A DNA stretch of 64,000 nucleotides. Source: Candidatus Pantoea floridensis (GTDB lineage Bacteria > Pseudomonadota > Gammaproteobacteria > Enterobacterales > Enterobacteriaceae). The stretch is from contig NZ_OCMY01000001.1 of the NCBI RefSeq assembly GCF_900215435.1, positions 1,984,001 through 2,048,000 of the forward strand, read 5' to 3'. The translations under genes and the position numbers were made by a program. Position 1 is the stretch's first letter. Every line of letters begins with the position of its first letter. The notes under the pieces are model-generated. The model saw only the letters and a list, made by a program, of their open reading frames with translations, did not search any database and had not been told where the DNA came from. Of this stretch, positions 5,448 through 64,000 are shown piece after piece.

Positions 5448-6299
5448 ATGTCTGTTTACATCATTGAAAGCAAGGTTGCCTTTAATACGGATATGCCGTC
5501 GTTAGCGGGCTTAGGCAGCGCGCAGCCTAATATCCCCATCAGCGCCGCAGCGGCACGTTGCCTGGTGGCATTAATTGAATCAGCGGGTGAGCCCGTGAGT
5601 CGCGAGCAGTTAATTTATGCCGGATGGGGCGCAATGGGACACATTGTCAGTGAGAACAGCTTAAATCAGGCGGTGACCCAACTGCGCAAAGTGCTGAAAG
5701 AGCTGGAGCTGAACGGCGAGTTGATCATGACGGTTCCGCGGCTGGGCTATAAGATCTCGCGCATGTTCAGCATTGAATGCGCGGGAGTCGCGACGTCGAC
5801 AGGTTTGTCAGAAATCAGCGCCATGGCCGAAGAGGACGAAACTCATGACATGGCAAAATCATCACGCCAGGAACGCTATCGTGCGGCGCCTTCCCGCCAG
5901 CCAACATCGCGTCTGATGGGGCGCATGCGCCTTGCTTTGCTATCAGCCATTGTCGTGCTTGTCAGTTTTTCACTGTTCTGGGTCGTCAATAAAAGCACCG
6001 TACAGCAGATTTTCACCCAATATCACACCGTGCATTATCTGCCGCTGGTGACGCGTTTAAACCAGCTGCAGGTCTTCTATAACCAGAGTATCGATACGCA
6101 AAATGACTATCTTGCGAATGCCCTTAAGCAGCTAGAGAGTGATGAGTGGTTTCATCGCATACTCGAGGGCGAGGTGCATTTCATCTATATCAACGGCTCC
6201 TACAACCCTGATGTTTTTAGCTATTTTCTCTGTCGCGAGGAGATACAGCAGCACGCGAAGGGTTGCGAAGCTTACACCTCTATCCAGGAAGGAACATGA
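5448..6299 (+). CDS. CadC/ToxR-like membrane-anchored winged-helix regulator
   Basis: Starting at ATG 5448 (after ACGGGAAATCGAG), the 283-residue protein has an N-terminal OmpR-type winged helix (about residues 15-100, with VSREQLIYAGWG and LNQAVTQLRKVLKEL, ending MTVPRLGYKIS). A basic linker follows, then one transmembrane helix (LALLSAIVVLVSFSLFWVV) and a periplasmic domain of about 100 residues with one late cysteine (FLCREE). This layout fits one-component regulators that sense the periplasm and bind DNA directly. It is divergent from the fimbrial operon and coupled to a FidL-like gene, as in Salmonella marT-fidL, so it probably controls these fimbriae. Confidence 0.85.
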   Translation: MSVYIIESKVAFNTDMPSLAGLGSAQPNIPISAAAARCLVALIESAGEPVSREQLIYAGWGAMGHIVSENSLNQAVTQLRKVLKELELNGELIMTVPRLGYKISRMFSIECAGVATSTGLSEISAMAEEDETHDMAKSSRQERYRAAPSRQPTSRLMGRMRLALLSAIVVLVSFSLFWVVNKSTVQQIFTQYHTVHYLPLVTRLNQLQVFYNQSIDTQNDYLANALKQLESDEWFHRILEGEVHFIYINGSYNPDVFSYFLCREEIQQHAKGCEAYTSIQEGT

Positions 6300-6811
6300 T
6301 GCATAAGCGAGTCTGGCTGCTGGGGATTACCTTTTTTATCGCGCTTGCGCCGTGGATCGTTGAACGGGTTTATACCCTTTCGGTAATCAGCTATCCGTAT
6401 CATTGCGAATCACGCTTTGGCTTTAAATACATCAGTGCAACGGGCGAAGCAGCGGTGGCTTCTGAAGGCAGCATGCAGCTAACGTATTATCAGAGCGGAA
6501 ATGGCGTGGGAACGTATGTTGGGCACCTTTTTCACCTGGATGGACAAGGTAAGGTGTTGAAGAAGCAATCCATTCATCGCGCCATGGAGTTCTCATATCA
6601 ACTGTTACCGGGCATGCTCAAATCCACCACTCTCACTTCGAGCCGTATTCAGGGAGATGAAATCAGCGATGCCGATGCGGAAAAATATGTCTATCCCGGC
6701 TTCAAAGTGGGCCACACCTCGTTTGGCATGATCGTTAAAATCAATCGCGGAGGTTATGCCGCAGGGAGCAGCCAGTTCCCGCGCGCCATGTGCTCTACGT
6801 TGGATAAGTGA
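6296..6811 (+). CDS. FidL-like inner membrane protein
   Basis: The ATG at 6296 overlaps the regulator stop (ATGA) and follows CCAGGAAGGA, so the two are translationally coupled. The 171-residue product has one N-terminal membrane segment (LLGITFFIALAPWIVERVY) and a periplasmic domain with cysteines at YHCES and AMCST. It resembles the FidL family found beside MarT/CadC-like regulators. By analogy it may modulate the periplasmic domain of its partner. The function of FidL proteins is not well established, so the name rests on context, size and topology. Confidence 0.7.
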   Translation: MMHKRVWLLGITFFIALAPWIVERVYTLSVISYPYHCESRFGFKYISATGEAAVASEGSMQLTYYQSGNGVGTYVGHLFHLDGQGKVLKKQSIHRAMEFSYQLLPGMLKSTTLTSSRIQGDEISDADAEKYVYPGFKVGHTSFGMIVKINRGGYAAGSSQFPRAMCSTLDK

Positions 6812-6840
6812 GAACCTTTCAGATATAGCGCGCACGAACT

Positions 6841-6996
6841 GTAGCGGCGCAATTTATTGCGCAATGCTTGTCAGTTAAGGTTAATCGGTCGCCATGAATG
6901 GCTCCCCTACATCTATTTAGCTGGTTTTTCGTAGGGTGCGCATTCATGCGCACCTGCATATAAACATAATTTATTGCGCGATAAATCGCGCCGCTA
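6841..6996. repeat. Cluster of intergenic palindromic (REP-like) repeats
   Basis: Four short palindromes are packed here. GTAGCGGCGCAATTTATTGC at 6841 and the reverse complement of 6969-6996 (GTAGCGGCGCGATTTATCGC) form an inverted pair. Between them, 6888-6910 (reverse complement begins GTAGGGGAGCCATTCATGG) and 6931-6954 (GTAGGGTGCGCATTCATGCG) share a GTAGGG-CATTCATG-ACC pattern. The same pattern recurs at 9429-9454 and 12226-12251. Confidence 0.75.
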
Positions 6997-7097
6997 CGGA
7001 ATATATGCTTATTTGAGCGGCATTAGGCCGTTGGGCCTGGATAAAGCAACACAGCGCGTTTGCTGCGTTGTATTCAATCAATACCGAAAAATCGATT

Positions 7098-7565
7098 TTA
7101 TTTACGGTGAACTTCAACGACGGTTCCTTTATTATTTAATCGATAGTCGCCACCATTATAGACGGTGAAAATCGTCCCCAAATTTGTGCTTTTTTCTACC
7201 GCAAAAATGGCTTCCTTCTCTATGCAGTTTTTCGGCGGGGGCATATCATTAAAACAGAGCCTGTCATATTTACCTTCTTCTTTATAGCCCTCACCAAATA
7301 ACCAGAAAATAATAGTGTAAGATCCATATGTTGCAGGCTTGGGTATCTTATACTTAACTCTAAGCATATCTTTATTTTCTAACCACCAGCTTATCTTCCC
7401 TCGATCACTAAAGGGAAAGTTCTTTACTAAAATATAGCTGTGGTTACCATTCTGATGGACGCCAACAATTTCTACCGAGCGCTGAGATAGCCAGAAGACA
7501 TAAGATGTCAGAATAGCTGGAAGCAGTATCAGTACCCATAGAAGCCTTTTTTTACTGGCTTTCAT
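7098..7565 (-). CDS. DUF943 family membrane protein
   Basis: From ATG 7565 the product is 155 residues: a short basic N-terminus, one transmembrane helix (LLWVLILLPAILTSYVFWL), then a conserved extracytoplasmic domain with VEIVGVHQNG, LVKNFPFSDRGKISWWLENK and YKEEGKYDRLCFND. These match the DUF943 family common in Pantoea, Erwinia and Serratia. A longer upstream frame exists but has no family character. DUF943 proteins have no proven function; they often occur in accessory, toxin-linked regions. Codon use and GC are lower than in neighbouring genes, suggesting horizontal origin. Confidence 0.8.
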   Translation of the reverse strand: MKASKKRLLWVLILLPAILTSYVFWLSQRSVEIVGVHQNGNHSYILVKNFPFSDRGKISWWLENKDMLRVKYKIPKPATYGSYTIIFWLFGEGYKEEGKYDRLCFNDMPPPKNCIEKEAIFAVEKSTNLGTIFTVYNGGDYRLNNKGTVVEVHRK

Positions 7566-7860
7566 TACGGGCTCCAGTAATTTCAATATACCGGTAAGGG
7601 CCGGACATATCGCTGGCGCCATAGTCGTCCATTCTTTTTTGCGTAGTAAATATTGTGCAGGGAAATTGCAGTGCGGCCATCGTTTTACACTCCTTGTGTA
7701 TTCAATCGTCCTATATGGTCTCCAGTGCAATTCATGCGTAGAGACGAGCAGAAGTATATAAACTGCTTGCTTTCTGTTCGCCCTCGTTTGGTCGATTTTG
7801 AGTAAGGAGTCACAGTGAAACATTTCAGGGTGCCGATTTGCTCTTAACATCCAGGATAGC
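7566..7860. other. Gene-poor stretch upstream of the DUF943 gene
   Basis: About 295 bp are open on the minus strand in frame with the DUF943 gene but show no recognisable domain and no convincing start. The portion just before the gene could be a leader or the remnant of an earlier gene. Nothing else can be supported here. Confidence 0.4.
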
Positions 7861-7867
7861 GTGCAAA

Positions 7868-7897
7868 TAAAAAAAGCCCGCGCTGAGCGAGCTTTTT
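7868..7897 (-). terminator. Rho-independent terminator after yicC
   Basis: On the minus strand the stem AGCTCGC / GCGGGCT (one G-T pair) with a short loop is followed by seven T, 30 bp after the yicC stop. Confidence 0.8.
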
Positions 7898-7927
7898 AGC
7901 TTTCGGCTAATTCATGCCACGGCAGTG

Positions 7928-8791
7928 TTACTCAATATTCTGAATCTGTTCGCGCATCTGTTCGATCAGCACCTTCAACTCAATCGCTGATGCGGTGATC
8001 TCGGCGTTGATAGACTTCGACGCCAGCGTGTTCGATTCACGGTTAAACTCCTGCATCATGAAATCGAGGCGGCGGCCAACGGCTTCTTTCTTCTTCAGGA
8101 TGTTGTAGGTCTCTTTAACGTGCGCATCCAGACGATCCAGCTCTTCCGCCACATCGATACGCTGCGCCATCATCACCAGCTCTTGCTCCAGGCGATTATT
8201 TTCCAGCTGTACTTCGGCTTCTGCCAGTTTGGTCACCAGGCGCTCGCGCTGCCATTTGATCACTTCCGGCATCTGCGCGCGCACTTTGCTGACTTCTTGC
8301 GATACGCCTTCCAGGCGCTGTTCTATCATCGCTTTCAGCGCGGTGCCTTCACTTTCGCGCGCTTCGATAAAATCATCTAATGCGCCATCCAGCGCTACCA
8401 GCAGTTCGGCGTTAATCGCATCCAGATCTTGCTCCTGCGCGGACATCACGCCAGGCCAGCGCAGAATATCCAGCGGGTTGATCGCGCCCTCATCGCTTTG
8501 CATTTTTACCCAGTTGGCGGCCTGCACCAGCTGTTTGGCCAGCGATTCATTCAGCTGTAATTCGCCTTGCGCGCTGGCATCGGCGTCGTAGCGCAGGTAG
8601 CACTCAATTTTACCGCGCGTCAAACGGTTGCGGATGCGCTCGCGGATTACCGGCTCCAGACCACGAAATTGTTCCGGCAGACGGATGTAGGTTTCCAGAT
8701 AGCGCTGGTTAACAGAACGAAGTTCCCACGCGGCGCTGCCCCAGTGGCCTTTGGCTTCGCGGCGGGCGTAAGCGGTCATACTGCGGATCAT
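7928..8791 (-). CDS. yicC: YicC family endoribonuclease
   Basis: Start ATG 8791 (MIRSMTAYARREAKG) gives 287 residues, the size of E. coli YicC. It has the conserved N-terminal domain with LRSVNQRYLETYIRLPE and the C-terminal domain ending with RRLDFMMQEFNRESNTLASK and ELKVLIEQMREQIQNIE. YicC is reported to be a Mn-dependent endoribonuclease that helps PNPase degrade small RNAs such as RyhB. It lies near rph and pyrE as in other Enterobacterales and has its own terminator. Confidence 0.95.
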   Translation of the reverse strand: MIRSMTAYARREAKGHWGSAAWELRSVNQRYLETYIRLPEQFRGLEPVIRERIRNRLTRGKIECYLRYDADASAQGELQLNESLAKQLVQAANWVKMQSDEGAINPLDILRWPGVMSAQEQDLDAINAELLVALDGALDDFIEARESEGTALKAMIEQRLEGVSQEVSKVRAQMPEVIKWQRERLVTKLAEAEVQLENNRLEQELVMMAQRIDVAEELDRLDAHVKETYNILKKKEAVGRRLDFMMQEFNRESNTLASKSINAEITASAIELKVLIEQMREQIQNIE

Positions 8792-8946
8792 AGTCGTCTT
8801 CTCATTTTCAGAAATGTTGGGTGAAGTATAGCGAGGCCGGCTCGAGGCTAACAGGCATAAGCGCACTTAAGCTTGAATAACAAAATATTACCGCTTTTCG
8901 CAACGCGCCTTTATGCTTAGCCCTCGTTCACTTTTGAGGATTCGTG

Positions 8947-9390
8947 ATGTTCCGCTCCGTGGCTCTCCCTGCTTTATTGACGTTACTGCTGGCTGGATGT
9001 CAGACGCCTGTTACCTCGCATCAGCAGATCCCGCCGAATACGGCACCGGTGGCGGTGTGCGGTTCTGGTGACGTGATGATGCAAACCACGCTGTGGTTTG
9101 GCATGAATAAACCGAAAGGTGGCACCGTGAGTAACCTTGAATGGCAGCAGTTCGTGGATAACGACGTCACGCCGCGCTTCAAAGATGGATTATCAGTCTA
9201 CGATGCCAAAGGGCAATGGCTGGGCGATAACGGCAAGCTGGCGCGGGAAAACAGTAAAGCGCTGATGCTGATTCACAACGCAGATCGCAGCAGTTCTGAC
9301 AGTATTAATGGATTGCGTGAGGTCTACAAAAAGCGCTTTGAGCAGGAATCCGTGATGCGCGTTGATTCACTGGTATGCGTGGCGTTTTAA
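8947..9390 (+). CDS. Lipoprotein of the DUF3574 type
   Basis: The ATG at 8947 follows TTGAGGA with 6 bp spacing; a GTG at 8944 is the alternative. The 147-residue product has a lipoprotein signal with lipobox LLAGC (Cys about residue 18). The mature domain contains VCGSGDVMMQTTLWFGMNKP, FVDNDVTPRFKDGLSVYDA and a C-terminal VDSLVCVAF, typical of the DUF3574 family. It is probably anchored in the outer membrane periplasmic leaflet. Function unknown. It is a single gene divergent from yicC. Confidence 0.8.
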   Translation: MFRSVALPALLTLLLAGCQTPVTSHQQIPPNTAPVAVCGSGDVMMQTTLWFGMNKPKGGTVSNLEWQQFVDNDVTPRFKDGLSVYDAKGQWLGDNGKLARENSKALMLIHNADRSSSDSINGLREVYKKRFEQESVMRVDSLVCVAF

Positions 9391-17036: not shown

Positions 17037-18295
<1,259 letters not shown>

Positions 18296-43160: not shown

Positions 43161-44192
43161 TCAACTTATGGCCGGCTCAGCGGCTTCCTGACGGCTTTTC
43201 CCTATCTCAATCGCCTCCAGTCCTCCGCCCAGCGGATTGAGCGTCACAGCGTGCTGGAGGAAGTCTGGCGCAAAGTGGGCGTAAATCATCGTCTGCTCAA
43301 TTTTTGCATGTCCGAGGATGTCACGCAGGGTAATGATGTTTCCGCCGTTCATCATAAAATGACTCGCGAACGTATGCCTGAGAACGTGTGTTGCCTGGCC
43401 GCGCGGTAACTCCGGTACGGCGGTTCTCAGCTTTTCCCTGAAACTCTCGTAATCCACTTTGAACAGCTTGCCACTTCTACGCGAGCCGATGAGTTTTTCC
43501 AGCTCATCAGAAATCGGGATAACCCTGTTTTTGCCGTTCTTCGTGGCAAAAAAGTGGATGCGTCCCATACGCACGCGCATTGCATCCAGTTCTGCCGCTT
43601 CACTCCATCGTGCACCTGTGCTCAGGCAAACCAGTGCAACCTTTCTTTCATCCCCTTCCAGAACGGCCAGCAGTGCAGTGATCTGATCCGGCATCAGGAA
43701 AATGACTTCAGGGTCTGCCTGTTTTAACGGAGGCAGCTTCTGAACCGGGTTAGGCTGGCGATACTCACCGAGCTTAATGAGAGTCGTGAACATGCCGGAA
43801 AGGCGATAAACATCACGGTTTATCGTGGCTGGCGAAATCCCATCTGCAAGCCTGGACGTTCTCAGCTGAAGCAGATTCTTTTTGCTGAGCGCGCTAGCCG
43901 GCATATCACCAATATGCGCAATGGTCTTGAGCAGGTGCATCCTCTCAATTTTCCCATTCTTCAGCGTAATACCGTGTACTTCCCACCAGTTAGCCAGTAG
44001 CTCAGAGATACGCCGGCGGTCTGAAGGTTGTTTAGACCATTCCTCCGGCTCGCTGGCCTTGCTCATTACCCAAAGTTCATACGCCTTCGCGTCTGATTTC
44101 CTGCTGAATTTCTTCCGGTATCGCTTTCCTGCTTTACCGGTAGGGCGGATGTCCACCATCCATTGACCATCATCAGTTGGTTTAATGCTCAT
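43161..44192 (-). CDS. int: P2-type tyrosine integrase
   Basis: ATG 44192 (MSIKPTDDGQWMVDIRPTGK) after AGGAGGGCTCAGCC gives 343 residues. The N-terminal arm-binding part is followed by a core-binding domain and a catalytic domain with the tyrosine-recombinase residues in STGARWSEAAEL (Arg), HVLRHTFASHF (His, Arg), LGHAKIEQT (His) and MIYAHF (Tyr). It catalyses integration at the cpxP-adjacent site and, with Cox, excision. The gene is transcribed toward the attachment site, as in P2. Confidence 0.95.
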   Translation of the reverse strand: MSIKPTDDGQWMVDIRPTGKAGKRYRKKFSRKSDAKAYELWVMSKASEPEEWSKQPSDRRRISELLANWWEVHGITLKNGKIERMHLLKTIAHIGDMPASALSKKNLLQLRTSRLADGISPATINRDVYRLSGMFTTLIKLGEYRQPNPVQKLPPLKQADPEVIFLMPDQITALLAVLEGDERKVALVCLSTGARWSEAAELDAMRVRMGRIHFFATKNGKNRVIPISDELEKLIGSRRSGKLFKVDYESFREKLRTAVPELPRGQATHVLRHTFASHFMMNGGNIITLRDILGHAKIEQTMIYAHFAPDFLQHAVTLNPLGGGLEAIEIGKSRQEAAEPAIS

Positions 44193-58169: not shown

Positions 58170-58388
58170 ATGCTGACACCTGCACGCCGCCATTTTGAAT
58201 CGGTAATGGCGCAGAACCGCGGCACTGCCGCAAACACGCTGGCAGACCTTACGGCCTATGAGCAGATGCTTCATCGCCTGCGCATCGATAAAAACCGTTT
58301 TCGTGGCATCCAGAACAACAAACTCAAGGCGGAGACCAAGGCCGCATCAACTATTTCAACTGATATCACGCTGAGGGAGGGCTCATGA
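58170..58388 (+). pseudogene. gpM-gpW fusion remnant (deletion scar)
   Basis: The 72-codon frame begins as terminase small subunit gpM (MLTPARRHFESVMAQNRGTA, LADLTAYEQMLHRLRIDKNR, NNKLKAETKAA), which in P2 is 247 residues. After about residue 59 the family sequence stops and a short different tail follows (STISTDITLREGS). The tail overlaps the J start by ATGA, as gpW does in P2. So the sequence from within M to near the end of W is missing: the rest of M, L, X, the lysis genes, R, S, V and most of W. The fusion is in frame but cannot be a working terminase subunit. Confidence 0.78.
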
Positions 58389-59302: not shown

Positions 59303-59913
59303 GCCTGATAAGCGGCCTGCTGCCACCGACTGCGACTGAGACTGAAATCCGCCTGGCGGAAGCGCGTAGCGGGCTGAGTGCGCTGAAAGTGCCGCTGCGC
59401 GATATCTGGAATCCTTACACCTGCCACGTCTCATTACTTCCCTATCTGGCGTGGTCACGATCGGTTGATCGCTGGGATGAAGGCTGGACTGAAGCTGTAA
59501 AGCGTCAGGTCGTAATCGATGCGTTTTTTGTCCACCGCTTCAAGGGAACCATCAGCGCCATCCGCCGGGTTGTTGAGCCTTTCGGCTTTCTGATCCGGGT
59601 TAAGGAATGGTGGCTGACGGACGATGAGCCGGGCACGTTCAGGCTGGACATCGGCGTTGAAGAGCAGGGCATCACTGAAGAGACCTATCAGGAGCTTGAA
59701 CGGCTTATCAGTGACGCGAAGCCGTGCAGCCGACACCTGCTGGGAATGTCTATCAATCTTCAGGTAACAGGATCGCTGCCTGTATCGGTGGCGAGCTACA
59801 GCGGCGACAGCGTGACGGTTTACCCGTATACGCCGGAATTAATTTCTGTGGGCGGGACGGCTTGGCAGGGCGGCACTGTCCACATTATCGATGAAGTTAA
59901 GGTGAACGCATGA
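59299..59913 (+). CDS. I: Baseplate/tail protein gpI
   Basis: The 204-residue protein has MSLISGLLPPTATETEIRLA, the conserved YTCHVSLLPYLAWSRSVDRW, WTEAVKRQVVIDAFFVHRFK and GTISAIRRVVEPFGFL. It links baseplate and tail fibres. It overlaps J and H by 4 bp each. Confidence 0.94.
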   Translation: MSLISGLLPPTATETEIRLAEARSGLSALKVPLRDIWNPYTCHVSLLPYLAWSRSVDRWDEGWTEAVKRQVVIDAFFVHRFKGTISAIRRVVEPFGFLIRVKEWWLTDDEPGTFRLDIGVEEQGITEETYQELERLISDAKPCSRHLLGMSINLQVTGSLPVSVASYSGDSVTVYPYTPELISVGGTAWQGGTVHIIDEVKVNA

Positions 59914-61145
59914 CAGCAAAGTATTTTGCAATTCTGACCAATGCAGGCGCGGCAAAACTTGCCAACGCAGCTGCGCTTGGCACTCAGGTAAAAATTACAA
60001 AAATGGGCGTTGGTGATGGTAATGGGGTTTTACCAACGCCAGACCCCGCAAAAAATGCGCTTATGCGGGAGGTGCGCCGGGCTGCACTTAATTCACTCAG
60101 TATCGACCCTGATAACGGTAATCAGATAATTGCTGAGCAGATAATCCCGGAGAGTGAGGGCGGCTGGTTCATTCGTGAAATAGGCCTTTATGATGATACG
60201 GATACACTGATTGCGGTCGCTAACTGCCCGGAAACATATAAGCCGCTTCTTGCTGAGGGGTCCGGGCGTACGCAGACTGTACGCATGATTATCATCGTCA
60301 GCAGTACTGAAAGCGTAACGCTGAAAATTGATCCGTCTGTGGTGCTGGCGACGCGAAAATATGTAGATGATGCAGTGATTGAGGTTAAGGGCTACACCGA
60401 CAACGTAATCAAAAACCACGTCGATGCGTCTAACCCGCACAGTCAGTATCTGCAAATAGCGAATGCACTGAGTGAAATTAAAGATGATGCAGGCCTGATT
60501 GCCACCGTTCTCAAAAACCTTGGTATTAGCGAAAGGTTCTCCGGCCGATTTATCAACCGGCAGATTTTTACCACACCCGGCGCAATTAACTACAAACCCA
60601 CGGCAGGAACAAAACGAATCAAGATCATCATAACCGGCGGCGGTGCGCGCGGTTATGGTTTCCTTGGATGGGGTTCGGATTATCGTGCGCGTGGTGCCGG
60701 TGGTGGTGCGGGCGCGACAGCTATTGCATGGCTGGATGTTGACGATACCAAAACGTATCCGGGCGTGGTGGGTCGAGGCGGTGACGATACAGTGACCCCA
60801 ACCAGCAGCACATTTAATGGCGTGCTGACGGCTGCAAACGGTGCCGTCCCTGCAACTGGCGGTGACGGCGGACGTGGTGGCGTCGCCGTAGGCGGAGACA
60901 TCAATCTTCAGGGTGGTGACGGCAGTGATTCACCCGGTCTCATCAGCACAACAACAAACGTGTATCGTGGTGGCTCAGGTGATGGTGGCGTGAGCTACTG
61001 GGGCGGAAGTATGCGCAGTACTGAAAATGCAACGCTTGGCCGCCAGGTAACTTTTGGTGCAGGCGGGGGCGGCAGTACTCGAGATAATCCCTTTATCGGA
61101 AACTTCGGCTCCCACGGCGTGATTTATATTGAGGAGTACACCTGA
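59910..61145 (+). CDS. H: Tail fibre gpH, expressed fusion with a variable C-terminus
   Basis: The 411-residue protein has a conserved N-terminal part ([60 protein letters not shown]) that joins the baseplate. A crossover site at 60508 (in VLKNLGISE, from residue 200) marks the end of the constant part. The remaining 211 residues are a glycine-rich tip ([20 protein letters not shown] to [13 protein letters not shown]) that probably binds the host surface. A different tip sits inverted downstream. Confidence 0.93.
60508..60533. other. Left crossover site (dix/hix/gix-type)
   Basis: The site lies inside gpH and carries the core TCAAAAACCTTGGTATTAGC with an AA/TT central dinucleotide. It is like hix and gix sites of the Hin/Gin family. 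It encodes LKNLGISE in the fibre. Confidence 0.9.
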
Positions 61146-61537
61146 TGAAAACTTATGCCCGTATTGAGGAGCAGCGCGTCGCGGAAATCGTTTCTCTCGA
61201 CGTGAAGCCTGAAAAGCTCTATCACCCATCGTTGGTATGGGTGGACATTACCGCACTGGCTGAGCAACCAGACTTGAACTACCTCTACAGCGACGGCGTA
61301 TTTACCGCGCCTGTCATTGAAACAGAAGACGCCGTATTTATTGCTAACAGCCGACTTGCAGCTGAAATGGACGAAGCTAACCGGACAATTGCACCGTTGC
61401 AGGATGCAGTGGACATAAGCATAGCGACAGTCGAAGAGACGGCGCGCCTTGCTGAGTGGAAACGATACCGGGTGGCACTGAGCCGGGTTGACACAACTAA
61501 AGCACCTGATATTGACTGGCCTGAAAAGCCTGCATAA
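61145..61537 (+). CDS. Tail fibre assembly protein 1 (Tfa/gpG-like)
   Basis: The 130-residue protein has [20 protein letters not shown] and a C-terminus [30 protein letters not shown] region typical of Tfa chaperones (WKRYR ... DIDWPEKP). It overlaps the end of gpH by 1 bp. It should help the glycine-rich tip trimerise. It lies inside the invertible segment, so it moves with its fibre tip. Confidence 0.88.
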
Positions 61538-61541
61538 GAAC

Positions 61542-61570
61542 AAAGCCCGCACTATCGCGGGCTTTTTTTA
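61542..61570. terminator. Bidirectional terminator at the centre of the invertible segment
   Basis: AAGCCCGC / GCGGGCTT with loop ACTATC is followed by TTTTTTTA on the plus strand. It separates the two convergent tfa genes, so it works in either orientation of the switch. Confidence 0.88.
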
Positions 61571-62167
61571 AAGAGGTTTTTGCGGCCAGCTGATATCGGT
61601 TGCGCCATGAATATTTATTGCCTGTACGGCCTGAATGTACTGCATCCATTTTGTCAGTGATGCCTTATCACCGTCAGTGATTAGGCCCAGCAGCAACTGT
61701 GTCTGCCATGCCTGCGTCAAGCTGCTGGCCTCACTAATACGGGCTGACTTCTCTGCCTGCGCCGCGATGATAGCCGCCGCCTGCTGCGCCTGTACGTCAG
61801 TTATCCATGCTTCCCCGTTCCAGACGTCAAATGCTGTCGCAGGTGGAATGGACGTCGTGCCTTCCGGGTAGTCGCCGGGCTGAGTAACCACAACCTTTTC
61901 CCCCGTTGCCGTGCGGTAAACCATTTCACCGCGATGATCGGCAACCTGCTGCCAGCCCACGCCTGAATACACGCTGACCATGCCCGCAACGTTTGCAGGC
62001 GGCGCATCGCTCGTAGAGTTAGCCGGAATGCCTACTCCCTGAGGAAGATACTCGTCAGACGAGCCTGTAAAAAGCCCGCTTTCAGGATTAAAGTTATAAA
62101 TCGTCATCAGCCCGGATGATTTCGCCAGCCCGTCATTATCCAGTGTTACTTTTTTTATTGCGGCCAT
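61568..62167 (-). CDS. Tail fibre assembly protein 2 (silent orientation)
   Basis: The 199-residue Tfa protein (MAAIKKVTLDNDGLAKSSGL) has a longer N-terminus than copy 1 and the typical end LTKWMQYIQAVQAINIHGAT then DISWPQKPL. It starts 1 bp within the stop of tip 2. In the current orientation it is antisense to the late operon and should be little expressed. Confidence 0.9.
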   Translation of the reverse strand: MAAIKKVTLDNDGLAKSSGLMTIYNFNPESGLFTGSSDEYLPQGVGIPANSTSDAPPANVAGMVSVYSGVGWQQVADHRGEMVYRTATGEKVVVTQPGDYPEGTTSIPPATAFDVWNGEAWITDVQAQQAAAIIAAQAEKSARISEASSLTQAWQTQLLLGLITDGDKASLTKWMQYIQAVQAINIHGATDISWPQKPL

Positions 62168-62667
62168 TATGCAGCCCTCACAATGTAGTTAAACGCCACG
62201 TTACGCGGGCGGTTCTCAACGGCAGTAGGTACTACGAGAGATGCATCGAAAGTGGTATTAACTTCTCCTCCTGCTGTCCCCGCAGCACTCGTGCTACCCG
62301 CCGTATTGATGTACGTGAAAGCGCCACCCCACGCTGCTTTTGAATCCCCACCATAGTCGTAACCCAAGAACTTGCCGGTTATGTTTCGAATCGCGTCGCC
62401 CTGTTGAGAAAGAAGCGCACGCCCTGAGTCGACGCCGCGTCCATCATCCCAGCCGCGAATAAACTCGCCGCGAAGATCGGTCAATGTCAGCCCCGGATAA
62501 GCCAGAGCCAGTTTTGGATATAACGTGCCGCTGAAACTTGCTCCGTTGCTTTTCAGAAATACCATGCCAGACATGGATGCAAACAGCTCATTGGGCATTT
62601 TCGTATGGGGCCAGGGAAACGGCGAACCTATTACGGGTGAGCCTTCGCTTAAACCAAGGTTTTTGAG
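62167..62667 (-). CDS. Silent alternative tail fibre tip (H')
   Basis: The frame is open from the right crossover site: LKNLGLSEGSPVIGSPFPWP then HTKMPNELFASMSGMVFLKS. It continues for 166 residues with a collar-type fold (LTLTDLRGEFIRGWDDGRGV, FNYIVRAA end) like those of Mu/P2-family fibres. It lacks its own conserved N-terminal part and has no need of a start codon: it becomes translated only after inversion. An internal ATG at 62598 is probably not a real start. Confidence 0.9.
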   Translation of the reverse strand, partial: LKNLGLSEGSPVIGSPFPWPHTKMPNELFASMSGMVFLKSNGASFSGTLYPKLALAYPGLTLTDLRGEFIRGWDDGRGVDSGRALLSQQGDAIRNITGKFLGYDYGGDSKAAWGGAFTYINTAGSTSAAGTAGGEVNTTFDASLVVPTAVENRPRNVAFNYIVRAA

Positions 62668-62669
62668 AA
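62644..62669. other. Right crossover site (dix/hix/gix-type)
   Basis: Core AAACCAAGGTTTTTGAGAA in inverse orientation to the left site, 24 of 26 bases identical, with AA at the centre. It lies 64 bp upstream of the invertase gene, as gix and hix sites do. Confidence 0.92.
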
Positions 62670-62733
62670 AGATACTCCTGGTACTGATTGGCGGCCCGCT
62701 GGCACACTTCGAGGCTTTTAACGGGATGAGTCC

Positions 62734-63306
62734 ATGCTTATTGGCTATATCAGGGTGTCAACAAATGAACAGAATACGGATTTACAGCGTAACGCGCTGA
62801 AGAGCGCAAATTGCGACCTGATTCTGGAGGATAAAATTAGCGGGAAATCCCGTGACAGACCGGGACTCAAAAAGGCGCTGCACACGCTCGGGCAGGGAGA
62901 CACTCTCGTTGTGTGGAAGCTTGACCGGCTGGGGCGCAGTATGCAGCATCTGGTTATGCTTACCGAGGAGTTGCGCACACGAGGCGTTAACTTTCGCAGC
63001 CTGACCGATAGCATTGATACCATCACGCCCATGGGGCGATTCTTTTTCCACGTCATGGGCGCGCTTGCTGAAATGGAGCGCGAATTGATTGTTGAGAGAA
63101 CGCGCGCCGGATTGGCTGCGGCGCGCTTAAAAGGGCGTATTGGCGGCAGAAAAAGAGTAATGACTGAAGAAGTAATTGCCAGGGCGGAAAGAATGCTGAT
63201 AAAGGGAGCAACATTGCATCAGGTTGCACTGGTTTTAGATGTTTCAGTTAAAACACTTTACAAGTACATTCCAGCAGCTCGGCGGCGAGAGCTTCAAAGT
63301 ATGTAG
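62734..63306 (+). CDS. Serine DNA invertase (Gin/Pin/Hin family)
   Basis: The 190-residue recombinase starts MLIGYIRVSTNEQNTDLQRN, with the catalytic serine in RVS. The conserved DKISGKSRDRPGLKK, VVWKLDRLGRS and FFHVMGALAEMERELIVERT are followed by a C-terminal helix-turn-helix (ATLHQVALVLDVSVKTLYKY). It should invert the 60508-62669 segment, with help from FIS bound to an enhancer that commonly lies within the invertase gene. Confidence 0.96.
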   Translation: MLIGYIRVSTNEQNTDLQRNALKSANCDLILEDKISGKSRDRPGLKKALHTLGQGDTLVVWKLDRLGRSMQHLVMLTEELRTRGVNFRSLTDSIDTITPMGRFFFHVMGALAEMERELIVERTRAGLAAARLKGRIGGRKRVMTEEVIARAERMLIKGATLHQVALVLDVSVKTLYKYIPAARRRELQSM

Positions 63307-63311
63307 TGAGA

Positions 63312-63348
63312 ATGATAAAAGCCCGTAGGTAGCGGGCTTTATTTTATC
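63312..63348. terminator. Bidirectional terminator between invertase and gpU
   Basis: GATAAAAGCCCG / CGGGCTTTATTTTATC, loop TAGGTAG, with A and T tracts on both sides. It ends both the invertase gene and the convergent U gene. Confidence 0.88.
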
Positions 63349-63784
63349 AGGGATTCACCATCGACAATACGTCACTGATCGTTATGCTTCCTAGCCCTTC
63401 ACGAATATCCTCGCTCTGCTTTTTCAGCGTCAGCGTAAATTCAATTTTCTGTGCTTTGCCGTCTTGCATAAATTCCGTGCGGTTCTCCCGGATGCTGGTA
63501 ATAGCGAACATGCCGTAAATTGTGCCGGTTCCTTCTATCAGGGGCCATGCTTTGCCGCCATATGCCATCGTACGAAGTGCGGCGAGTGAAACATCACCGC
63601 CGGTAATTTCAGGGTACAGCGTACCGGTGAGCGTGATCGTATCCTCCCCCGCCCCGATGTACTGCCATTTTGCCGATTTACCGACCCGGTCATTTTTAAC
63701 GTGGCGGAATTCGGTCTGCTGTTCCAGCGACTGATAAGGCGCGGTCTGGCGCATGAAAACGAACATGCCATAAATCATCATCAT
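63347..63784 (-). CDS. U: Tail protein gpU
   Basis: The 145-residue protein contains MMMIYGMFVFMRQTAPYQSL, GEDTITLTGTLYPEITGGDV, WPLIEGTGTIYGMFAITSIR and a C-terminal KIEFTLTLKKQSEDI, the P2 gpU pattern. It is a tail terminator or sheath-linked protein. It is on the minus strand here, opposite to J-I-H, whereas P2 has both in the same direction. Confidence 0.93.
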   Translation of the reverse strand: MMMIYGMFVFMRQTAPYQSLEQQTEFRHVKNDRVGKSAKWQYIGAGEDTITLTGTLYPEITGGDVSLAALRTMAYGGKAWPLIEGTGTIYGMFAITSIRENRTEFMQDGKAQKIEFTLTLKKQSEDIREGLGSITISDVLSMVNP

Positions 63785-63792
63785 AAAATCAC

Positions 63793-64000
63793 CTATTCTC
63801 TGTCACGCAGCTGGGAGCGGCGGCGGTTGTCACGCTCGCGCAGCAGGTTATCCAGCTCGCGGCGGAGGGTTGTTGCCAGGCTCTTTTCATCCATCCTGGC
63901 GCTTTCGTAAAAATTCATGGTCAGGTTGAAGACATCGCCGCCAGCTGCCGCGTTGATGGCTGCCGAGTTAAAGCCGCCCGGTTTTGACCTTGCTGCAGGT
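63793..64000 (-). CDS. T: Tape measure protein gpT, C-terminal end (cut by window)
   Basis: The minus-strand frame enters at the edge and ends at TAG 63793: SKPGGFNSAAINAAAGGDVF, NLTMNFYESARMDEKSLATT, LRRELDNLLRERDNRRRSQL. This is the typical end of gpT (the tape measure) that precedes gpU. The rest, several hundred residues, lies to the right. Confidence 0.88.
   Translation of the reverse strand, partial: PAARSKPGGFNSAAINAAAGGDVFNLTMNFYESARMDEKSLATTLRRELDNLLRERDNRRRSQLRDRE

What the first reader, a model, noticed from the sequence alone, without database searches (positions are those of the whole stretch)
60508..62669. Invertible tail-fibre cassette with two matched crossover sites and its own invertase
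gpH carries a site at 60508-60533, and a nearly identical site in inverse orientation lies at 62644-62669 (24 of 26 bases). Between them are tip 1 plus tfa1 (plus strand) and tip 2 plus tfa2 (minus strand), with a shared terminator at the centre. The open frame of tip 2 continues through the site, so inversion would make a 366-residue fibre instead of 411. The Gin/Pin-type invertase is next door. Serine-invertase fibre switches are known from Mu, P1, e14 and Fels-2. This instance pairs a glycine-rich tip with a collar-type tip.
Basis: partly seen in the sequence, partly recalled or inferred. Interest (0 to 1): 0.85.

Follow-up and report, generated by a model that had tools for sequence, protein, structure and literature searches.

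The report
Gin-type tail-fibre switch, decayed prophage
A P2-like prophage that lacks several tail and lysis genes carries a DNA-invertase gene beside two matched 26-base sites; flipping the 2.1-kb piece between them would swap one tail-fibre tip for another, which is a well-known kind of phage switch.

Summary
The invertase is a Gin/Cin homologue with the catalytic serine. Its first 90 bases hold two Fis-type sites 48 bp apart, inside the stretch annotated as enhancer in P1 cin. The plan is that of Mu and Fels-2. The same pair of tips occurs in another genome of the genus (G031); tip 1 is silent in G032 and G002. Some contigs of draft relatives end inside the crossover site, as mixed orientations could cause (inference). 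New context: the prophage lacks L, X, lysis, R, S, V and most of M and W, and its FI-U block is reversed, as in Salmonella phage SEN5; 2 of the 16 reversed-block loci examined carry an invertase. Verdict: a new member of a known kind, inversion-competent by its parts, in a prophage that probably cannot build its own tail. Inversion in this strain is untested.

The parts
59910..61145 (+). gpH tail fibre in the present state, 411 aa: constant part (residues 1 to about 200) plus tip 1
   Evidence: Pfam Phage_tail_fib 1-150, E 8.2e-63; PHROG tail fibre families; ORF
60508..60533 (+). crossover site 1, inside gpH
   Evidence: 24 of 26 inverted match to site 2, core TT
60521..62656 (.). predicted invertible segment, 2136 bp between the two site centres
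   Evidence: in-silico inversion keeps gpH open in both states
60540..61142 (+). tip 1, glycine-rich C-terminal domain, now joined to gpH
   Evidence: Gly_rich_2 E 1.2e-4, 22.6 bits, below its 24.3-bit cut-off; model pLDDT 72.7 with best PDB match cyanophage Pam3 fibre 7ypx, E 1.1e-5
61145..61537 (+). tfa1, tail fibre assembly protein for tip 1, 130 aa
   Evidence: Caudo_TAP E 8.8e-29
61542..61565 (.). terminator-like hairpin between the two convergent modules
   Evidence: 10-bp stem; simple consensus match
61568..62167 (-). tfa2, tail fibre assembly protein for tip 2, 199 aa
   Evidence: Caudo_TAP E 1.8e-28
62170..62640 (-). tip 2, collar-type C-terminal domain, now silent; frame open through site 2
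   Evidence: PHROG tail (collar) fibre families; 196-codon open frame; PDB 9cuy 'Short tail fiber' and 2xgf 'Long tail fiber protein p37'; no Pfam match
62644..62669 (-). crossover site 2
62734..63306 (+). Gin/Cin-type serine DNA invertase, 190 aa
   Evidence: Resolvase E 1.3e-46, HTH_7; DNA-invertase 4m6f E 1e-77 with Ser9 conserved; ENT90 82%, P1 Cin 73%, Mu Gin 69%
62756..62770 (+). Fis-type site 1 of the predicted recombinational enhancer
   Evidence: 5 of 6 scored consensus positions; 48 bp from the next
62804..62818 (+). Fis-type site 2 of the predicted recombinational enhancer
   Evidence: 5 of 6 scored consensus positions
63318..63340 (+). terminator-like hairpin after the invertase gene
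58170..58388 (+). 72-codon ORF that begins as gpM (residues 1-58) and runs into the start of gpJ: predicted deletion junction where L, X, lysis, R, S, V and most of M and W are missing
   Evidence: PHROG 74 terminase small subunit, residues 1-58; gene map; ORF end compared with W ends of relatives by eye

Best explanation
The window holds a Gin/Cin-type invertase gene and two inverted 26-bp sites with matching cores, and the invertase likely flips the 2136-bp segment between them, which would swap the C-terminal tip of the gpH fibre together with its assembly gene. In the present state gpH (411 aa) ends in the glycine-rich tip 1 and tfa1 is downstream. After inversion gpH would end in the collar-type tip 2 (366 aa) with tfa2 downstream, while tip 1 and tfa1 fall silent. 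By analogy with Hin, two invertase dimers on the sites would meet at a Fis-bound enhancer at 62756-62818, whose two sites lie 106 and 154 bp from the centre of site 2. Shown from sequence: sites, cores, frames, invertase homology, Fis-type pair, both orientations of homologous modules in relatives, absence of essential prophage genes. Inferred: binding, Fis dependence, inversion, receptor change. Because the prophage lacks spike, tail-completion, lysis and part of the terminase genes, the switch probably no longer has a particle of its own to serve.
For: Sites and frames. Invertase matches the PDB DNA-invertase chains 4m6f and 3uj3 over 184 residues, with Ser9. Two Fis-type sites 48 bp apart at +23 and +71 of the gene; the best pair lies at the same aligned place in 16 of 16 invertase genes compared (Mu, P1, P7, Fels-2, Cartapus, ENT90, Yersinia 56.17, the window and eight genomes of the genus; spacings of 47-49 bp were tried), inside the enhancer that the P1 record annotates at +19 to +90. 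Same gene plan as Mu, Fels-2, Cartapus. 12 of 12 two-site loci tested keep gpH open in both states with matching cores. Tip 1 is joined to gpH in the window, G031 and G016, and silent beside an invertase in G032 and G002. Contig ends inside the site in some draft relatives.
Against: No reads of this strain were available; no inversion was observed. The prophage lacks L, X, lysis, R, S, V and most of M and W, and the one P2-sized spike gene found in the genome belongs to another decayed prophage, so the fibre may never be assembled. Conservation of the Fis-type pair can partly follow from protein conservation, because that stretch is coding. Tip 1 in the other orientation in other species could reflect module exchange rather than inversion. 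Two of the contig ends in the site (L025/L077 and L027) stop 10-11 bases into it, before the core, where mixed orientations do not predict a break. The simple scan found no sigma-70-like promoter in front of the invertase.
Confidence: 0.85

Rival explanations
1. A fossil switch: parts intact, but locked because the prophage is decaying and the invertase or late genes are not expressed, so the genome carries one orientation only. (This denies present activity, not the kind of system, so its odds overlap with those of the best explanation.)
For: Large gene loss in this prophage and in the other P2-like prophage of the genome; no sigma-70-like promoter was found in front of the invertase by the simple scan.
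Against: Invertase, both tips and both assembly genes are free of stops. Comparisons with relatives give dN/dS of 0.06-0.22 in the 11 of 12 comparisons where it could be computed, but dS exceeds 1.5 in 11 of 12, so this speaks for the long past, not for the time since the gene loss.
Confidence: 0.3
2. The two orientations seen among relatives arose by exchange of tip modules between phages, and the sites serve as recombination points rather than as an active switch.
For: Tip 1 sits on other N-terminal parts in 5 of 8 homologues read (P0013, P0053, P0057, P0065, P0071; the eight were picked from 89 hits, mostly because they lacked the usual N-terminal domain), so tips do move; PMC13195805 (passages) reports genus-wide exchange of tail-fibre loci in Pectobacterium.
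Against: Does not explain the adjacent invertase, the enhancer spacing, the matching cores, or contig ends inside the site.
Confidence: 0.08
3. The inverted repeat is a chance match beside an unrelated resolvase-type gene.
For: None beyond the shortness of the repeat.
Against: Three consensus matches in 5.45 Mb at one mismatch or fewer, two of them exactly here; best of 20 shuffles 22 against 24 observed; frames fit in both states.
Confidence: 0.01

Closest known systems
Fels-2 gpH/pin cassette (P2-like prophage of Salmonella LT2; NC_010463)
   Same: Same order: J, I, gpH, tfa, tfa (reverse), tip (reverse), invertase; two inverted sites; invertase 71% identical.
   Different: In Fels-2 the FI-U block follows the invertase in the same direction; here it is reversed. 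The Fels-2 record lists head, lysis and tail genes that are missing here.
Mu G segment with Gin (NC_000929)
   Same: S/U and the alternative fibre and assembly genes in opposite orientation, boundary inside S, invertase next to the segment; invertase 69% identical.
   Different: A transposable phage (recalled), with a different fibre.
P1 and P7 C segment with Cin
   Same: Invertase 73% identical (P1); enhancer annotated inside cin; inverted cix sites.
   Different: Larger segment (4.3 kb in P1), different constant fibre part, not P2-like.
Erwinia phage ENT90 invertase (NC_019932)
   Same: Top-listed invertase in the phage collection, 82% over 99% of the query; P2-like tail block follows.
   Different: Standard FI-U direction; fibre tips not compared.
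E. coli EC958 prophages Phi1, Phi2, Phi4 (PMC4134206, passages read)
   Same: 2-3 kb fibre segments between 26-bp sites, seen in both orientations in a PacBio assembly.
   Different: Inversion was observed there; here it is not.
Carotovoricin Er (Ein) and pantailocin invertase loci
   Same: Invertase genes at fibre loci of plant-associated enterobacteria; inversion alters killing in carotovoricin and is postulated for Pantoea stewartii, according to passages of PMC13195805 and PMC13280938. The primary papers were not held.
   Different: Those are tailocins, which have no head (recalled); this element keeps portal, terminase large subunit, scaffold and capsid genes but lacks spike V and most of W.

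Membership tests
Serine-invertase tail-fibre switch (Gin/Cin/Pin type) | Serine recombinase of the invertase subclass with catalytic serine | tested here: met
   Resolvase and HTH_7; DNA-invertase 4m6f E 1e-77, Ser9 conserved
Serine-invertase tail-fibre switch (Gin/Cin/Pin type) | Two 26-bp inverted sites with identical central dinucleotide | tested here: met
   24 of 26, TT/TT
Serine-invertase tail-fibre switch (Gin/Cin/Pin type) | Constant fibre part outside, two alternative tips each with an assembly gene inside, frames continuous in both states | tested here: met
   411 and 366 aa; tfa1 and tfa2 are Caudo_TAP
Serine-invertase tail-fibre switch (Gin/Cin/Pin type) | Enhancer with two Fis sites near one crossover site | tested here: met
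   By sequence only: pair with 48-bp spacing at the position of the P1 enhancer; Fis binding not tested
Serine-invertase tail-fibre switch (Gin/Cin/Pin type) | Inversion observed | not testable with these tools
   No reads; contig ends at the sites in relatives are indirect
Fels-2-type P2-like arrangement | Invertase followed by FI-FII-E-T-U-D in one direction | tested here: not met
   FI-U on the minus strand, D on plus; standard in Fels-2
Reversed FI-U lineage (as in Salmonella phage SEN5) | FI-U block opposite to H and D | tested here: met
   SEN5 map; 16 of 90 loci that hold FI and D, window and SEN5 included; FI identity to the window's at least 60.5%, median 70%, against 50.5-57.4% in the 74 standard-order loci
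R-type tailocin | Tail, baseplate and lysis genes kept, head genes lost | tested here: not met
   Head genes Q, P, O, N present; V, R, S, X, lysis and most of W not found

The most novel reading that the evidence does not exclude
The switch is live although its own prophage can no longer build a tail, so the host keeps a switchable fibre donor whose two fibres are picked up in trans by other P2-like phages or tails that replicate in the cell.
Probability: 0.06. Interest if true: 0.55.

Novelty: new member of a known kind. Interest (0 to 1): 0.25.

Why it matters
It is a clean example of a classical fibre switch in a Pantoea genome (genus inferred), and it places the switch in a reversed-tail-block branch of P2-like phages where 14 of the 16 loci examined show no invertase in the DNA fetched. 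The more general gain is methodological: contig ends that stop inside the crossover site may point to mixed orientations, so inversion activity might be screened in public drafts without reads.

Tried and rejected
Rejected: that the reversed FI-U block is an artefact or a fresh inversion by this invertase. Between its two borders no inverted match better than 7 exact bases was found, and the best site-like word near them (63483) fits 14 of 22 consensus positions against 20 for each real site. The same order occurs in 14 other prophage loci and in phage SEN5. Rejected: that the element is a tailocin. Rejected: that the other P2-like prophage of the genome could supply a complete tail: a 998-codon ORF joins FI to the T end, FII was not found, and O, most of N, M, L, X, holin and most of the lysozyme gene gave no match. 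Led nowhere: structure of tip 2 (pLDDT 47); near relatives in plasmids (no match in 'near' mode); the pantailocin and carotovoricin Er papers (not held). No claim is made that anything is absent from print.

Limits of the counts. The 12 two-site loci were chosen from loci with two clear sites next to gpH; loci with one site, cut by a contig end, without gpH nearby, or with three or more sites (L046, L047, L114, L116, L118, L201, L202, L206, L208, L212 and others mapped) were left out. In one search, 49 invertase loci were given and 38 gave a match at E 1e-30 or better; the other 11 were dropped. Invertase-bearing loci are enriched because some were fetched through the invertase; L072 has the reversed block but no D in the stretch and was not counted. 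L055 and L118, and L077 and L205, are the same genomes. Of 12 dN/dS comparisons one could not be computed.

Full report
What was checked. The two sites are present at the stated coordinates, 24 of 26 bases identical in inverse orientation, both with the central dinucleotide TT. Outside the 26 bases the flanks show no extended match, as expected for crossover sites and not for a gene duplication. The best inverted 26-mer match in 20 Markov shuffles of the region was 22. In the whole genome three places fit the consensus with one mismatch or none, two of them being these sites. The invertible segment would be 60521-62656, 2136 bp. The present gpH has 411 residues; after inversion it has 366.

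Anatomy. gpH has the tail-collar-fibre N-terminus (PF12571). Tip 1 is a glycine-rich domain: its Pfam score is just under the cut-off (22.6 against 24.3 bits), and an AlphaFold model with mean pLDDT 72.7 (70 or more at 118 of 201 residues) finds the cyanophage Pam3 fibre as best solved match, E 1.1e-5. Tip 2 matches PHROG tail and tail-collar fibres and the PDB chains 9cuy (short tail fiber) and 2xgf (long tail fiber protein p37) by sequence, but no Pfam family; its model was too poor to use. Each tip has its own assembly gene (Caudo_TAP), with a terminator-like hairpin between them. The invertase matches the PDB DNA-invertase chains 4m6f and 3uj3 over 184 residues with the catalytic serine in place (that these are Mu Gin is recalled). 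In the phage collection the best-listed relatives are ENT90 (82%), two Yersinia phages (77%), P1 Cin (73%), with Fels-2 at 71% and Mu Gin at 69%.

Enhancer. Hin-type inversion uses a 65-bp enhancer with a Fis site at each end, about 100 bp from one crossover site (PMC3798978, passages read). The scan of 62641-63310 gave one pair with a spacing of 46-50 bp: TGTCAACAAATGAAC and GCGCAAATTGCGACC, 48 bp apart, 106 and 154 bp from the centre of site 2. In 16 of 16 invertase genes compared the best pair lies at the same aligned place with 48-bp spacing, among spacings of 47-49 tried, and in P1 it falls inside the annotated enhancer. The stretch also codes for protein, so part of this conservation may have another cause.

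Relatives in both states. In 61 genomes of the genus, 14 (window included) have an invertase match at E 1e-60 or better; tip 1 is found in 6 of 61 (one only a 31-residue start at a contig end) and tip 2 in 17 of 61. G031 has the same pairing in the same orientation: tip 1 active, tip 2 silent, invertase 79-80%. Tip 1 is joined to gpH in the window, G031 and G016 (no invertase found in the stretch fetched for G016); it is silent beside an invertase in G032 and G002, and G009 has the start of it at a contig end behind a site identical to site 1 in all 26 bases. Tip 2 is active beside an invertase in G045, G027, G047 and Siccibacter colletis, silent in the window, G031, S. turicensis and a Pluralibacter assembly. 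In 12 of 12 two-site loci tested, inversion keeps gpH open and the cores agree. The genus is Pantoea by inference: two of the 'same genus' genomes share DNA with the named Pantoea records L055 and L077.

Indirect sign of activity in relatives. Among 75 loci from named genomes, 7 end within 1.3 kb downstream of the gpH constant part; 5 of these 7 end inside the site or 2 bases beyond it (L057, L065, L071, L074, L077), and 2 do not clearly (L040, L041). Among 30 loci of the relatives search, 3 are cut within 1.3 kb downstream, all three inside the site, and none upstream; one of these three is the same genome as L077. Three of the five and one of the three stop 19 or 20 bases into the site, where two inner half-sites would begin to differ; L025/L077 and L027 stop at 10 and 11 bases, which that model does not predict. 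On the invertase side, of 38 loci 8 are cut within 1.3 kb on the cassette side and 1 on the other side; three of the 8 start inside a site or site-like word (L172, L226, L227), five do not. A mixed population of both orientations could cause this; so could two related cassettes in one genome. PMC4134206 (passages read) reports that fibre inversions produced extra contigs in E. coli EC958 and that about half of the reads at Phi1 were inverted, which supports the inference but does not prove it here.

The carrier. The prophage starts near an integrase-like ORF at 43161 (read by eye) and runs through Q, P, O, N to a 72-codon ORF that starts as M and reaches the start of J. With Fels-2 proteins as queries, L, X, holin, lysozyme, LysB, R, S, V and W gave no match in the window or the adjoining 18 kb, while the 13 reversed-block relatives in the same search hold most of them. 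The one spike match of P2 size in the genome is in another prophage near C1:3.89 Mb; the four other matches sit in frames of 727-1012 residues, probably VgrG. That prophage is decayed too. Beyond the window the block U-T-E-FII-FI lies on the minus strand and D on the plus strand. This order is shared by 16 of 90 loci with both FI and D (window and SEN5 included), and their FI proteins are closer to the window's (60.5% or more, median 70%) than those of the 74 standard-order loci (50.5-57.4%). Salmonella phage SEN5 has it. Only the window and Trabulsiella L046 combine it with an invertase in the DNA fetched.

Selection. Between the window and relatives, tip 1, tip 2, tfa1, tfa2 and the invertase show dN/dS of 0.06-0.22 in 11 of 12 comparisons (one not computable), with dS above 1.5 in 11 of 12. 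The silent tip 2 thus looks maintained as a gene over the long term, like tip 1; saturation forbids a finer statement, and it says nothing about the time since the prophage lost its genes.

Judgement. By anatomy this is a classical serine-invertase fibre switch and a new member of a known kind. Steps shown: sites, cores, frames, enzyme family, enhancer-like pair, both orientations of homologous modules among relatives, missing genes. Steps inferred: enzyme binding and strand exchange, Fis dependence, inversion in this strain, change of receptor.

Noticed in passing
window 63347-64000 and L008 1-8399: Tail block U-T-E-FII-FI is reversed relative to H and D; the same order in 15 other loci examined, Salmonella phage SEN5 among them, with FI proteins forming a closer group.
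   Followed up: yes
window 58170-58388: A 72-codon ORF starts as terminase small subunit M and runs into J; L, X, lysis, R, S, V and most of M and W were not found in the prophage.
   Followed up: yes
L127 (G000:C1:3878000-3897000), 6188-9184 and 17205-17897: A second P2-like prophage in the same genome is also shrunk by deletions, one joining FI to the end of T in a single 998-codon frame; its fibre carries a tip 64% identical to tip 2.
   Followed up: partly
L046 8745-14520: Trabulsiella odontotermitis prophage of the reversed-block type with two invertase genes in opposite directions (81% DNA identity) and three crossover-like sites (1-3 mismatches) around a gpH-like gene.
   Followed up: partly
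L013, L025, L027, L057, L065, L071, L074, L077 ends; L172, L226, L227 starts: Contigs of draft genomes begin or end in or at the 26-bp crossover site; a possible read-free screen for active inversion.
   Followed up: partly
L114 1003-14281; L201 near 12556 and 13656: Photorhabdus luminescens locus with four crossover-like sites, and G002 with two on one contig plus one on another, suggesting multi-tip cassettes.
   Followed up: no
P0013, P0053, P0057, P0065, P0071: Tip 1 domain joined to other N-terminal parts (273-275 residues, 370 in P0053), a sign that tips move between fibre types.
   Followed up: no
L050, L056, L059, L062, L067, L080, L082, L083, L100, L119, L133 about 1 kb beyond gene D: A 26-mer (TTCAGTCAGAGCCAGGTTTTCCAGAA or its complement) that resembles a crossover site at 2 mismatches recurs downstream of P2-like prophages; probably conserved host sequence, not examined.
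   Followed up: no
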